64,000 nucleotides of DNA from NCBI RefSeq assembly GCF_029626025.1, contig NZ_JARUBF010000001.1, forward strand, positions 4,092,001 through 4,156,000, in the 5' to 3' direction. The notes beneath the pieces are model-generated. The model saw only the letters and a list, made by a program, of their open reading frames with translations, was not told where the DNA came from and did no database searches. The position numbers were made by a program, and so were the translations under genes. The DNA is from Solwaraspora sp. WMMD406. Lineage in GTDB: Bacteria; Actinomycetota; Actinomycetes; Mycobacteriales; Micromonosporaceae. The first letter of the stretch is position 1, and the number at the start of each line of letters is the position of its first letter. Of the stretch, positions 31,061 through 63,056 are shown in pieces.

Positions 31061-31088
31061 GCGGAATCGGCGTTTCTAGGGATTCCGC
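31061..31088. promoter_or_regulatory. Perfect 8-bp inverted repeat, divergent promoter
   Basis: GCGGAATC (31061-31068) and GATTCCGC (31081-31088) are exact reverse complements separated by 12 bases. The repeat lies 30 bases upstream of the LuxR-type regulator start and overlaps the shared CTAGGG palindrome at 31076-31091. It is a strong candidate operator for autoregulation. Confidence 0.55.
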
Positions 31089-31091
31089 TAT
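31076..31091 (+). promoter_or_regulatory. Candidate shared operator, site A
   Basis: CTAGGGATTCCGCTAT lies between the LuxR-type regulator and the first WXG100-like gene. It matches 13 of 16 positions of CTVGGGAWWTCCCBAG, a palindrome recalled from memory as the target of PAS-LuxR regulators of the PimM type. Similar sites occur at 38075, 45679 and 63028. Confidence 0.5.
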
Positions 31092-31214
31092 TGCCCCGGC
31101 GCGGCGGCTGGGGAACCGTTGGGCCGTGGCGATGCCGGGTCGCCGCGTCGTCGTGTCGCGAGGTGTCGCCGGGGTCAGCGACCACGGTGCCACCGCGGAG
31201 AAGGGTGGCTGTCG

Positions 31215-31559
31215 ATGAGCACTGGCTTCTTCAACAAAGAGGACGCTGGCTTCCAGACCGCGATCGCGGCGCTGGACGATCACGTGACCAACATGATCAA
31301 CGCCGGCCGGACCGCCTACCGGATCCAGAGTGAGATCCGTGGCTCGTACCAGGCCGGGTCCAGCTCGGTCTTCCAGGCGAAGCTCGACGAGTGGATCAAC
31401 GCGTACAACACTGTGATGATCAAGTTCCAGGACCTGGGGGAGAAGACCGGCTTCGTGGGCCAGGTCATCGACTCGGGTGAGCAGGATGCCGGCGTTACCG
31501 GAGCCAGCTGGGACACCAACGACGGGATCTACGACATCCTGGCGCCAGCCGGCCGCTGA
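31215..31559 (+). CDS. WXG100-like small helical protein (putative T7SS substrate)
   Basis: A 114-aa protein with two predicted helices joined by a turn: NKEDAGFQTAIAALDDHVTN, then IRGSYQAGSSSVFQAKLDEW and YNTVMIKFQDLGEK. SYQAGSSSVFQ takes the place of the Trp-x-Gly turn of ESAT-6/CFP-10 proteins, so the motif is degenerate. No signal peptide and no cysteine. ATG 31215 has an AGAAGGGTGG ribosome site. It heads a + strand run of three genes followed by the Ecc core genes and probably forms a helical pair with a neighbouring small protein. The family assignment is by size, fold pattern and context. Confidence 0.65.
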   Translation: MSTGFFNKEDAGFQTAIAALDDHVTNMINAGRTAYRIQSEIRGSYQAGSSSVFQAKLDEWINAYNTVMIKFQDLGEKTGFVGQVIDSGEQDAGVTGASWDTNDGIYDILAPAGR

Positions 31560-31583
31560 GTGGCTGAAACCGGGGGGTGAACC

Positions 31584-31991
31584 GTGGCTGACGAAACCTT
31601 CACCGTCACCGATCGCTATCTGAACGGCACCATCCGTACGCGCTTCGAGGACTTCCTCGCCGAAGCGACGGAGAACCAGTACGTGCGCAAGCTGCTCGCG
31701 TACACCGGCGAGCCGCCCGCGCCCGCCGACGACACGCCGTTCACCATCCTGCTCGCCGGCAACGAGGAGGTCATGTCCGAGGTCGGCCAGCTCGAAAGTA
31801 ACTTCGCCACCATGGCGTTGAGTGCCCAGGGCAACGTCAAGAGCTTGTTCGACCTGATCGAGACCCTGCGGGACGATTTCCTGGACGCGAAGCAGACCCT
31901 CGATGTCGGCACGGACGAAGCGCTGACCACCGCGCAACTGCTCGACCTGGTCCGGGACGTGTGGCAACCGACCCCGAACCTCGGGCTGTAG
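31584..31991 (+). CDS. Small acidic helical protein of T7SS locus
   Basis: A 135-aa acidic protein with no recognised domain. It is mainly alpha-helical: a first section FTVTDRYLNGTIRTRFEDFL, a Pro-rich turn (GEPPAPADDTP), then two helices ending LFDLIETLRDDFLDAKQTL and AQLLDLVRDVW. No cysteine and no signal peptide. It starts at GTG 31584, 24 bases after the WXG100-like gene, with GGGGGGTGAA as a ribosome site. Position suggests a WXG100 partner or a chaperone for the large secreted protein that follows; no firm function can be assigned. Confidence 0.6.
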   Translation: MADETFTVTDRYLNGTIRTRFEDFLAEATENQYVRKLLAYTGEPPAPADDTPFTILLAGNEEVMSEVGQLESNFATMALSAQGNVKSLFDLIETLRDDFLDAKQTLDVGTDEALTTAQLLDLVRDVWQPTPNLGL

Positions 31992-60812: not shown

Positions 60813-60886
60813 TTTCCCTGTCCTGCTTCGCAGGGGTTCCGTTTCCTCCCCGGCCGCAACGCCGGAGTATCCACGGAAGGAATCCG

Positions 60887-61474
60887 ATGACCGTGGCCGT
60901 TCGTGGTGCCGGTACGGATGCGACGCCGGACGACGCCGAACCGGACCTGCGCGCGCTGTACGAAAGCCAGGCTCCAGGTCTGTTGCGCTACCTGATCCGG
61001 CTGACCAACGGCGACCGGCATCAGGCCGAGGATCTGTTGCAGGAGACACTGCTGCGAGCCTGGCGGCATCCGGAGGCGCGAACCGACGACGGTGGTTGGC
61101 GTCGGCCATGGCTCTACACCGTCGCCCGCAACATCGCCATCGACGACCTGCGGACCACCCGCCCGGTGGAACTCACCGGTGACCTTCTCGACGAGCAGCC
61201 CGACGATGAGGATCGCATCGAACGGATGCTCGACGCCGGGGTGGTCCGGTCGGCGTTGGAATCCCTGCCGGAGCGGCTGCGCGTCGTCCTGGTCGAGGTC
61301 TACCTGCGGGAACGCTCCGGGCAGGAGACGGCGCAGCTGCTGGGGGTGCCGGTCGGGACGGTGAAGTCGCGTACCTTCTACGCCTTGCAGGCGCTGCGCG
61401 AGCGACTCACGTCCATGCCGGAAGCTAGTCATCGCCCATCCGCAGGGTCCACCGCGCCGCTGGACCAGCGCTGA
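60887..61474 (+). CDS. Sigma-70 family (ECF-type) RNA polymerase sigma factor
   Basis: A 195-aa sigma factor. Region 2 reads LRALYESQAPGLLRYLIRLT, AEDLLQETLLRAWRH and PWLYTVARNIAIDDLR (promoter melting and -10 recognition); region 4 reads LESLPERLRVVLVEVYLRER and ETAQLLGVPVGTVKSRTFYA (-35 recognition helix-turn-helix). No anti-sigma gene adjoins it. ATG 60887 with GGAAGG upstream is chosen. The 5' flank is the TnpB element's left end, so the native promoter may have been altered. Its 3' end overlaps the LysM-like gene by 50 bases. Confidence 0.92.
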   Translation: MTVAVRGAGTDATPDDAEPDLRALYESQAPGLLRYLIRLTNGDRHQAEDLLQETLLRAWRHPEARTDDGGWRRPWLYTVARNIAIDDLRTTRPVELTGDLLDEQPDDEDRIERMLDAGVVRSALESLPERLRVVLVEVYLRERSGQETAQLLGVPVGTVKSRTFYALQALRERLTSMPEASHRPSAGSTAPLDQR

Positions 61475-62942
61475 CCACGACCGGCACCGTCGGCCAGTCC
61501 GGACGGCTGGCCAGCGCGTGGACATCGGCCAGTGCTTCGGGACCCGGGTCAGCGAACACGGTCACCGCAGCGGTCCCGAGGTCGGGCTCGGCCGTGTCGG
61601 TGACGGACATCCGACGGCAGCCGGCCGGGAGCGGATCGATCGCGGTGCCGACCACGCTGACACTGGAACCGGCGGCCAACAGCCGATCGAGGAGCAACCG
61701 CGCGGCTCGTTCGCGGGGGCCGACGGGTCCGGTGATCACGAGCACGTCGGGTGCCTGCCGCAAGTCGATCCAGAGTCGTCCGTCTGCGCCGTCACCGATG
61801 GGGACGAGCGTGCCCGAGGCGGCGCCGACCGGGGGCTGCGGTCCGGCCATCCACCGGTACGGTGGTCCGCCGCGCGCCTGCCGTGCCCCGATCAGCCGCA
61901 GCACCGCCGGATCGTCACCGACCCGGATCGCCGCTGTCAGGTGGAGCGGCGTCTGGCCGTCCGACGTGTCCGCCTCGGGAGTCGCGTCGCCGGTCGCCGG
62001 TGCGCTGTCGGCCTGAGGCGGCTCGGCGTTGCCGGGGGTGGTCACCACCAGCGGCGCGGCACCGCTCGGGTGCATGATGGTGTCACCCGGGCGCGGCACG
62101 GCGTCGCCCGGTCGTACGGCGCCACCCGGGCGCATGATGGTGTCGCGCGGGCGCGTGGCCGTGTCGGCCGGGCGCGCGGCCGCCATGGCAGTGGCTGCCG
62201 CCGCCGACGCGGGGCGCGGCGGCACCGCTGGCCGCTGTGCCGCCGCCGGCCGGGGCCGGGACTCGGGCTGAGTCCGGGCCGGTGTCGCCGGCAGCCGGGC
62301 CGGGGCGGTGGTCCTGCCACGGCGCAACACCAGTACGGCGAGCGCGAACAGACCGATCGCGGCCATCGCGGCACCACCACGGATCAGCAGCTCCGAGCGT
62401 CGGTCTGGTGCGGCGACGGCGGTGTCGCGGGGTTCCCGGGGCGACACGTCGGGCACCGGAGTGGGCAGCGGTCCGTACCGGACGCCCGCGCCCCGCGCGT
62501 CGTCTGGCAGCCGCAGCACCCATCCCGGCTCCACCCGCGTCGGGTCGGTCAACTCACCTCCGTCGGGCTGCACCCGGCCCACGTTGAGGTCGAATATCTC
62601 CCGATAACGGCGACCGTCACCGAGCGTACGGGCGGCGATGGCGAACAGGAAGTCCCGTTCTCCGCCCGGCAGTTCCTCGACGACGTAGTACCGCACGTTC
62701 GCGCCGGATTCCCCGTCGGACGGTGTCGTGGCGTCCGTGGTCGCCGACCGGGCCGGCGTGGGCCCGCTGGGCTCGGTGGGCCCGCCGGGCGCGACCGCCA
62801 ACGGCTCCACCAGAGACACCAACCGCTCGTACGGTGACTGTGGAGCGGTCCCGGCAGCGCCGGTGATGACGGTCATCGGGCCGAGCAGAGCCAACCCGGC
62901 CAGGGCCGGCACCATCTGCCAGGCCCACCAACGCTGCCGCAT
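61425..62942 (-). CDS. LysM-like membrane protein of T7SS locus
   Basis: A 505-aa protein. An N-terminal signal/membrane segment (MVPALAGLALLGPMTVITGA) is followed by a Pro/Ser/Thr linker, a LysM-like domain (VRYYVVEELPGGERDFLFAI, EIFDLNVGRVQPDGG, EPGWVLRLP) and a second membrane helix (GGAAMAAIGLFALAVLVLRR) near residue 195. The rest is an Ala/Pro/Arg-rich stretch with repeats of DTIMRPGG, then a C-terminal domain with TPLHLTAAIRVGDDPAVLRL and PDVLVITGPVGPRERAARLL. ATG 62942 is preferred because GGGAG lies five bases upstream and it places the signal segment at the N-terminus. The LysM-like domain is closely related to that of the divergent mycosin-like gene. Confidence 0.75.
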   Translation of the reverse strand: MRQRWWAWQMVPALAGLALLGPMTVITGAAGTAPQSPYERLVSLVEPLAVAPGGPTEPSGPTPARSATTDATTPSDGESGANVRYYVVEELPGGERDFLFAIAARTLGDGRRYREIFDLNVGRVQPDGGELTDPTRVEPGWVLRLPDDARGAGVRYGPLPTPVPDVSPREPRDTAVAAPDRRSELLIRGGAAMAAIGLFALAVLVLRRGRTTAPARLPATPARTQPESRPRPAAAQRPAVPPRPASAAAATAMAAARPADTATRPRDTIMRPGGAVRPGDAVPRPGDTIMHPSGAAPLVVTTPGNAEPPQADSAPATGDATPEADTSDGQTPLHLTAAIRVGDDPAVLRLIGARQARGGPPYRWMAGPQPPVGAASGTLVPIGDGADGRLWIDLRQAPDVLVITGPVGPRERAARLLLDRLLAAGSSVSVVGTAIDPLPAGCRRMSVTDTAEPDLGTAAVTVFADPGPEALADVHALASRPDWPTVPVVVSAGPAARWTLRMGDD

Positions 62943-63020
62943 GTCCACTCCCGCTGCCGCGCGGGACCACCCCGCCGGCCGTACCGATCCTGTCAAGCTG
63001 GAACGAAGCAGCATATGCCC

Positions 63021-63056
63021 AGGTTCACGGCGGACTTCCCTAGCTGTCGTGAACCT
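63021..63056. promoter_or_regulatory. 9-bp perfect inverted repeat in the LysM/mycosin divergent promoter
   Basis: AGGTTCACG (63021-63029) and CGTGAACCT (63048-63056) are exact reverse complements separated by 18 bases. The repeat brackets operator site D and a CTAGGG at 63055-63060. It lies between two T7SS-linked genes transcribed apart and is a candidate regulatory site. Confidence 0.55.
63028..63043 (-). promoter_or_regulatory. Candidate shared operator, site D
   Basis: Read on the - strand, CTAGGGAAGTCCGCCG matches 13 of 16 positions of CTVGGGAWWTCCCBAG. It lies inside the inverted repeat at 63021-63056, between the LysM-like and mycosin-like genes. Confidence 0.45.

What the first reader, a model, noticed from the sequence alone, without database searches (positions are those of the whole stretch)
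31076..63043. Four similar 16-bp palindromes in the divergent promoters of the T7SS locus
CTAGGGATTCCGCTAT (31076), CTGGGTGAAACCCCAG (38075), CTGGGGTAGTCACTAG (45679) and, on the - strand, CTAGGGAAGTCCGCCG (63028) each match 13 of 16 positions of CTVGGGAWWTCCCBAG, recalled from memory as the target of PAS-LuxR regulators of the PimM type. Each sits in a divergent intergenic region of the T7SS locus (LuxR/WXG, EccD/EccC, AAA/WXG, LysM/mycosin), and CTAG is rare in such DNA. This suggests one regulon, perhaps run by the neighbouring LuxR/AAA protein. The significance was not computed, because I chose the sites by eye.
Basis: partly seen in the sequence, partly recalled or inferred. Interest (0 to 1): 0.75.

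Follow-up and report, generated by a model that had tools for sequence, protein, structure and literature searches.

The report
PimM-like operators in T7SS promoters
Three of the four palindromes in this bacterium's protein-export gene cluster have stayed almost unchanged in related species and sit at fixed distances from predicted promoters, so they look like real switches, perhaps run by an antibiotic-type regulator encoded elsewhere; the fourth is part of a different promoter.

Summary
All four 16-mers exist and match 13 of 16 positions of the PimM consensus, which the literature confirms. Five of six other genus members carry the orthologous T7SS locus. Sites A (31076), B (38075) and C (45679) are conserved in 6 of 6 species; A and C are the (joint) most conserved 16-mers of their gaps, and permutation tests give p = 3e-4, 1.5e-4 and 1e-3. 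B lies 46.5 bp from the eccC -10 and 48.5 bp from the eccD -10 in 6 of 6 species; C lies 59.5 bp from its -10 in 5 of 6. Site D (63028) fails (p = 0.21) and lies in a conserved pair of ECF-type promoters. The neighbouring LuxR/AAA protein has no match above 35% identity in the five relatives, so it is a poor candidate. A PAS-LuxR gene elsewhere, present in 7 of 7 genus genomes, with a helix-turn-helix like that of a polyketide-cluster PAS-LuxR, is the better one; a broken copy lies inside one relative's T7SS locus. Binding is not shown: the operators are solid, the regulator is inferred.

The parts
31076..31091 (.). Site A, CTAGGGATTCCGCTAT, upstream of the WXG-like gene at 31215
   Evidence: 14 of 16 columns invariant in 6 species, joint top of 169 windows; permutation p 3e-4
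38075..38090 (.). Site B, CTGGGTGAAACCCCAG, midway between divergent eccD and eccC promoters
   Evidence: outer arms invariant in 6 of 6 species; 12 of 16 columns, rank 32 of 118 in a well conserved gap; permutation p 1.5e-4
45679..45694 (.). Site C, CTGGGGTAGTCACTAG, upstream of the esx-like gene at 45831
   Evidence: 14 of 16 columns invariant, best of 288 windows; permutation p 1e-3
63028..63043 (.). Site D of the finding: mainly the (C/T)TAGGGA half is kept; not supported as a full palindrome
   Evidence: 10 of 16 columns, rank 67 of 173, insertion in G003; p 0.21 for the gap
63050..63075 (+). ECF-type promoter TGAACC-N16-CGTC towards mycosin
   Evidence: conserved alignment; pattern found; the ECF promoter form is recalled
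63002..63027 (-). ECF-type promoter towards the LysM-like gene (TGAACC-N16-CGTT here; CGTC in the five relatives)
38029..38034 (-). Predicted -10 of eccD (TATCCA); -35 TGGACA at 38053-38058
   Evidence: fixed distances in 6 of 6 species; start site not mapped
38129..38134 (+). Predicted -10 of eccC (CAGGAT), 6 bp before the GTG start (leaderless transcript inferred)
   Evidence: fixed distances in 6 of 6 species; start site not mapped
45746..45751 (+). Predicted -10 of the esx operon (TAGCGT)
   Evidence: 59.5 bp from the centre of C in 5 of 6 species, 60.5 in G004
28283..31030 (-).
   Evidence: AAA_16 4.7e-15 and GerE 2e-13; no match above 35% identity in the five T7SS-bearing relatives
31215..31559 (+). 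Small WXG-like protein gene downstream of site A
36634..38007 (-). eccD
   Evidence: Pfam EccD 3.7e-69, YukD 8.7e-23
38141..42136 (+). eccC
   Evidence: FtsK_SpoIIIE 1.6e-90; 85-92% identical in the five relatives
42222..45527 (-). Beta-helix plus tandem AAA (CbxX/EccA-like) protein
   Evidence: Beta_helix 4e-51, AAA 7.7e-37
45831..46124 (+). esx-like gene downstream of site C
   Evidence: ORF; 78-92% identical in the five relatives; no WXG model matched
60887..61474 (+). ECF sigma factor gene, likely cognate to the TGAACC promoters
   Evidence: Sigma70_r2 and r4; ortholog in the T7SS locus of all five relatives, best G005 match 49%
61425..62942 (-).
   Evidence: weak LysM-profile match, E 0.0024, 18.3 bits against a cut-off of 134; no Pfam match
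63131..64000 (+). Mycosin-like gene (runs on to 64978 in the genome)
   Evidence: Peptidase_S8 1.1e-7 in the part beyond the window, none in the part inside it; 63-75% identical in the five relatives

Best explanation
Sites A, B and C are operators of one dimeric LuxR-type activator, most likely the genome's PAS-LuxR (PimM-like) protein at about G000:C1:1710614-1711474. It binds the palindromes about 47 or 60 bp upstream of the -10 boxes and recruits the housekeeping RNA polymerase to start the eccD/eccB operon, eccC, the esx/YbaB/large-protein operon and the small WXG-like operon together. Site B serves two divergent promoters at once. A second tier, the LysM-like and mycosin genes around site D, is transcribed from ECF promoters by the sigma factor encoded in the locus. 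Shown: conservation, palindromy, match to the consensus, constant distance to predicted -10 boxes, and presence of the regulator gene. Inferred: the promoters themselves, the operons, binding, activation, and which regulator does it.
For: Conservation in 6 of 6 species and permutation p of 3e-4, 1.5e-4 and 1e-3. Fixed distances to the predicted -10 boxes, in C despite indels. The published PAS-LuxR consensus, and a positive control: around type I polyketide synthase genes of a plasmid that carries a PAS-LuxR gene, 6 of 7 distinct matches are intergenic by the record's gene table, which is incomplete. One PAS-LuxR match at E 1e-5 or better in this genome, orthologs in 7 of 7 genus genomes. Recognition helix SRKGVEYHVTALLR against SRGGVEYHVTALLR in the polyketide-plasmid protein. 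A broken PAS-LuxR copy inside the T7SS locus of G006, which also has the fifth site. The other three ESX loci of the genome lack the site at 3 mismatches.
Against: No binding data. C has 4 or 5 mismatches to the consensus in four relatives. In this genome 12 other places match better; at least three of them lie in coding sequence and the rest were not sorted out. At 2 mismatches or fewer G005, without this T7SS, has 13 places, about as many as the others (12-23), so the consensus alone does not mark the T7SS. Known PAS-LuxR sites overlap or adjoin the -35, whereas site B lies 16 bp upstream of the predicted eccD -35. The PAS-LuxR gene is also in G005, so presence and absence do not link the two. 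Seven T7SS loci from five other genera show one weak match in the eccD/eccC gap. No genome-wide regulon was recovered: the profile search gave nothing, not even the known sites, with 150 of about 470-700 candidates scored per genome. Another conserved match lies in the leader of bldD, so conservation of a match is not proof of this regulator.
Confidence: 0.5

Rival explanations
1. The sites are operators of a different LuxR/NarL-type regulator (for example a response regulator) with a similar GGG-CCC palindrome; the PAS-LuxR likeness is convergent.
For: The core TRGG is common to LuxR-type helix-turn-helix proteins (recalled). Central bases of C and B depart from AWWT. Spacing differs from known PAS-LuxR promoters. 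GerE-type proteins of the genome were not surveyed.
Against: The outer CTRGG and CCYAG match the PAS-LuxR consensus closely in B and C, less so in the right half of A, and a broken PAS-LuxR copy lies in the locus in G006.
Confidence: 0.35
2. One reading: the adjacent LuxR/AAA protein binds all four sites.
For: It is adjacent to site A and has a GerE domain. A 37% identical protein lies near a T7SS locus in G101.
Against: The sites are kept in five species with no match above 35% identity. The gene occurs in this locus only here. Its recognition helix differs from PAS-LuxR proteins. D is not supported as a site.
Confidence: 0.05
3. The islands are core promoter elements or RNA structures, not regulator operators.
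For: In this genome C ends in CTAGAAT, which resembles a -10 box. Site D turned out to be part of a promoter pair. The bldD match lies downstream of a predicted -10, in a transcript leader.
Against: G002 and G006 keep CTAG but read CTAGTAA, so the -10 reading is not kept while the palindrome is. B lies between two separate conserved -10 sets. Three gaps share the same kind of palindrome.
Confidence: 0.08
4. Chance: the sites were picked by eye from high-GC DNA.
For: Chosen by eye; genome background of 191 matches; D failed.
Against: Shuffle and permutation tests and conservation in 6 species.
Confidence: 0.02

Closest known systems
PAS-LuxR regulators (PimM, CfaR, PteF) and their CTVGGGAWWTCCCBAG operators
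   Same: 16-bp palindrome with CTRGG/CCYAG ends; candidate regulator with PAS plus LuxR helix-turn-helix and GVEYHV recognition helix
   Different: Targets are a type VII secretion locus, not an antibiotic or phytotoxin cluster; sites lie farther upstream of the -10 than the CfaR site, which adjoins the -35; the regulator gene is distant from its presumed targets
Mycobacterial ESX regulation (EspR, PhoP, IdeR/Zur, SigM; recalled)
   Same: Dedicated transcription control of a T7SS; an ECF sigma factor seems to take part, as recalled for ESX-4 and SigM
   Different: No LuxR-type palindrome is recalled there; here one site type recurs in three divergent gaps and an ECF sigma factor is encoded in the locus

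Membership tests
PAS-LuxR operator (PimM type) | 16-bp palindrome fitting CTVGGGAWWTCCCBAG | tested here: met
   A and B 13-14 of 16 in all six species; C 13 of 16 in two species and 11-12 in four
PAS-LuxR operator (PimM type) | Overlaps or adjoins the -35 box of the regulated promoter | tested here: not met
   Site B lies 16 bp upstream of the predicted eccD -35; start sites are predicted, not mapped
PAS-LuxR operator (PimM type) | Bound by a PAS-LuxR protein | not testable with these tools
   needs gel shift, DAP-seq or ChIP
PAS-LuxR regulator family | N-terminal PAS and C-terminal LuxR/GerE domain | tested here: met
   L071 protein: GerE 1.7e-8; PAS 1.1e-4, 22.6 bits, exactly at its cut-off
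PAS-LuxR regulator family | Helix-turn-helix like that of polyketide-cluster members | tested here: met
   36.5% identity over 197 residues to the Pseudonocardia polyketide-plasmid protein, near-identical recognition helix
PAS-LuxR regulator family | Encoded in an antibiotic cluster | tested here: inconclusive
   Neighbours look like a DsbA-like and an FAD oxidoreductase by reading of ORFs (names by recall); no cluster search was done
T7SS (ESX-type) locus | EccB, EccC, EccD, mycosin and small WXG-like substrates | tested here: met
   EccB, EccD, FtsK_SpoIIIE; subtilase match in the mycosin-like protein; the small proteins match no Pfam WXG model, but the 3257-aa protein has a WXG100-like domain
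ECF-sigma promoter | GAAC-type -35 and CGTC-type -10 about 16 bp apart, ECF sigma gene nearby | tested here: met
   TGAACC-N16-CGTC towards mycosin and/or LysM in all six species with a conserved ECF gene in the locus; use by that sigma factor not tested; the consensus is recalled

The most novel reading that the evidence does not exclude
In a whole genus a PimM-type PAS-LuxR activator, known from antibiotic clusters, has been wired to a type VII secretion locus. It fires three sets of promoters together while an in-locus ECF sigma factor controls the mycosin and LysM-like genes, making a two-tier switch for a non-mycobacterial T7SS.
Probability: 0.4. Interest if true: 0.65.

Novelty: new variant of a known kind. 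Interest (0 to 1): 0.5.

Why it matters
What switches on T7SS in non-mycobacterial actinobacteria is little known (recalled), and the PAS-LuxR review, of which I read passages, says that most of these regulators belong to type I polyketide pathways. In the open-access library held here one paper contains both PAS-LuxR and type VII secretion, and it names PAS-LuxR only in its reference list; one contains both PimM and type VII secretion, and by its title and abstract start it is about tuberculosis proteins. If true, secretion and antibiotic-type regulation could share a sensor, and the inducing condition of a T7SS becomes testable through a known regulator family. The sites give ready gel-shift probes.

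Tried and rejected
Site D as a fourth palindrome: rejected. LuxR/AAA as regulator: disfavoured by comparison. A sequence-only profile of 26 site variants found nothing at E 10 or below in seven genomes, the known sites included: too little information in 16 bp. The exact palindrome CTRGGGNNNNCCCYAG has 9 places in seven genomes, against 83 for the reversed control pattern; the two patterns differ in dinucleotides, so no avoidance is claimed. The consensus at 2 mismatches or fewer has 105 places in seven genomes, 38 for the reversed control, and the T7SS sites are a small part of them (the listing was cut). Other conserved matches: the leader of bldD (name by recall) and a site about 30 bp upstream of a small gene in three genomes (DUF3117 by recall); neither was pursued. 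Of the PAS-LuxR matches outside the genus I looked at three stretches (G030, G259, G187); none has a hit to the T7SS proteins of the window at E 1e-4. T7SS loci outside the genus: of 24 EccD loci scanned near the gene, two have a match at 3 mismatches, none fits CTRGGN6CCYAG exactly and four fit it with one mismatch, against 6 of 6 exact in the genus; of seven larger loci from five other genera, one (G012) has a weak match in the eccD/eccC gap, and seven further matches in four of them lie elsewhere and were not examined. The -10 for site A is uncertain: TGCTG lies 47.5-48.5 bp away in five of five relatives but is a poor -10 and is missing in this genome. The fifth site was not permutation-tested.
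Full report
OBSERVATION. The four 16-mers are present at 31076, 38075, 45679 and 63028, each with 3 mismatches to CTVGGGAWWTCCCBAG. The consensus is the published PAS-LuxR (PimM-type) operator, as passages of PMC9774167 and PMC4380410 confirm. The genome holds 191 matches at 3 mismatches or fewer in 7.16 Mb, so 0.02 would be expected in the 808 bp of the four gaps. Five are found: the four plus 45581. Dinucleotide shuffles of the gaps give a mean of 0.04 and never more than 2 in 3000. 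The four are not the best matches of the genome: 12 other places have 1 or 2 mismatches. At least three of those lie in coding sequence (155413 and 2939161 by ORF; 989981 inside an ECF gene).

COMPARISON. Seven genomes of the genus are held, this one included. Five of the other six have the orthologous locus, with EccD 75-89% identical; G005 lacks it. Gene order is kept, except that the LuxR/AAA and DUF3558 genes are found in this locus only in this genome, a TnpB (IS605 OrfB) gene lies between the 877-aa and ECF sigma genes here, and G006 has about 1.5 kb extra between the YbaB-like and 103-aa genes. In six-species alignments A, B and C stand out. Invariant columns are 14 of 16 for A (joint top of 169 windows), 14 of 16 for C (best of 288), 12 of 16 for B (rank 32 of 118 in a well conserved gap, with its outer arms invariant) and 10 of 16 for D (rank 67 of 173). 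Permuting columns within conservation classes, with the best window free to fall anywhere, gave p = 3e-4 (A), 1.5e-4 (B), 1e-3 (C) and 0.21 (D) in 20000 permutations each; Fisher's combination of all four is 3e-8.

FIFTH SITE AND CONTROLS. G002 and G006 have CTAGGGAAATGTCCAT, and G001 and G004 CTAGGGAGATGCCCAC, upstream of the 103-aa gene; this genome and G003 have a shorter gap and no site. The other three ESX loci of this genome have 0 matches at 3 mismatches in 60 kb; the looser CTRGGN6CCYAG fits once exactly there, inside EccD. Of 24 EccD loci outside the genus two have a match at 3 mismatches near the gene and none the exact CTRGGN6CCYAG, which 6 of 6 genus loci have; of seven larger loci from five other genera one has a weak match in the eccD/eccC gap. 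The wiring therefore looks specific to the genus.

GEOMETRY. Site B is centred 48.5 bp from the first base of the predicted eccD -10 box (TAT...), with a TGGACA -35 16 bp from the site and an 18-bp spacer, and 46.5 bp from the predicted eccC -10 box (CAGGAT), in 6 of 6 species. C is 59.5 bp from a TANNGT -10 in 5 of 6 species and 60.5 in G004, although the bases between have diverged and align only with gaps. The same GCCGTACCGT -10 follows a TTGACC -35 in the bldD promoter (gene name by recall). The two distances differ by roughly one helical turn, as expected of an activator bound upstream on one face; this last step is inference.

SITE D. All six species keep AGGTTCAC, a spacer, then GTGAACCT. 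Read outwards these are two divergent ECF-type promoters, TGAACC-N16-CGTC (consensus recalled), towards mycosin and the LysM-like gene. Strict matches were found in this genome (+ strand only; the LysM side reads CGTT), in G003 (- strand only) and on both strands in G001, G002, G004 and G006. A further match lies about 60 bp upstream of a ricin-lectin-domain gene after mycosin in this genome; similar matches lie after mycosin in G001, G002 and G003, and only in G001 was an ORF checked beside it. The pattern occurs 37 times in this genome as a whole, against 6 for the reversed control, and most of those places were not examined. An ECF sigma gene at 60887-61474 is kept in the locus of all five relatives; the best G005 match is 49% identical. 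That this sigma factor reads these promoters is inferred.

REGULATOR. The LuxR/AAA protein has no match above 35% identity in the five relatives. A helix-turn-helix piece of a PAS-LuxR-like gene, found inside the T7SS locus of G006 but split over two frames, was used to search the genus. Every genome, 7 of 7, has a chromosomal PAS-LuxR gene 66-67% identical over that piece, and this genome has one match at E 1e-5 or better. Its protein has GerE and PAS domains, is 87-88% identical in the other six genomes and has the recognition helix SRKGVEYHVTALLR, against SRGGVEYHVTALLR in a Pseudonocardia plasmid protein encoded near type I polyketide synthase genes; LuxR/AAA has SPKTVEANLARVYR. The three fetched stretches of that plasmid have 7 distinct matches to the consensus, 6 of them intergenic by an incomplete gene table. 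In 250 genomes of the family, the seven of the genus included, 37 have a match to the helix-turn-helix piece at E 1e-14. A conserved GGGGTAC...CCCAGTAAC element lies upstream of the PAS-LuxR gene in six of seven genomes, not in this one; PimM and CfaR are reported not to regulate themselves.

WEIGHING. That A, B and C are real operators is strongly supported. That the PAS-LuxR protein binds them is the best single candidate but unproven: C fits the consensus poorly in four relatives, the spacing is longer than in known PAS-LuxR promoters, the gene is also kept in G005 without this T7SS, the consensus has many better matches elsewhere, other LuxR-type regulators were not surveyed, and no wider regulon was recovered. 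Literature: one held paper contains PAS-LuxR and type VII secretion, the former in its reference list only; searches were seen as listings, capped at 25 of 56, 4 of 4, 15 of 1004, 2 of 2 and 10 of 196. Most subscription papers are not in that library.

Noticed in passing
63002-63075 and genome position G000:C1:4158752-4158777: Divergent ECF-type promoters TGAACC-N16-CGTC at LysM/mycosin, and another about 60 bp upstream of a ricin-lectin-domain gene after mycosin; an ECF sigma gene is conserved in the locus.
   Followed up: partly
63131-64978 (beyond the window in L051:1-978): The mycosin-like protein matches Peptidase_S8 but reads TGTAIAG and TMYATAYVAG where the recalled His and Ser motifs would stand, so it may be a dead protease; a second S8 gene lies at L051:2885-4378.
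   Followed up: no
59525-61525: The 667-aa minus-strand ORF joins a TnpB/IS605 OrfB (about residues 270-624) to an antisense reading of the ECF sigma gene; among the six loci the TnpB part lies there only in this genome.
   Followed up: partly
27606-31030: LuxR/AAA and DUF3558 genes sit between the 588-aa gene and the WXG-like gene only in this genome; G101 has a 37% identical LuxR/AAA protein near a T7SS locus.
   Followed up: partly
42222-45527: A right-handed beta-helix fused to tandem CbxX/EccA-like AAA domains, 83-91% identical in the five relatives.
   Followed up: no
46912-56685: A 3257-aa protein with an N-terminal WXG100-like domain that diverges more between species than its neighbours; it looks like a large T7SS substrate.
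   Followed up: no
G006:C1:4441932-4442410: A PAS-LuxR-like gene inside the T7SS locus, its PAS and helix-turn-helix parts in different frames.
   Followed up: partly
L130 3000-3015: CTGGGGAAAGCCCCGG in the leader of a bldD-like gene (name by recall), identical in the five genomes aligned; perhaps a transcript hairpin.
   Followed up: no
L081, L084, L085 (1501-1516): A perfect CTGGGG-N4-CCCCAG palindrome about 30 bp before a small conserved gene (DUF3117 by recall) in three genomes.
   Followed up: no
L095 10842, L096 11008 and 14660: Matches to the consensus at 2-3 mismatches within about 5 kb of PAS-LuxR genes in two genomes of another genus.
   Followed up: no
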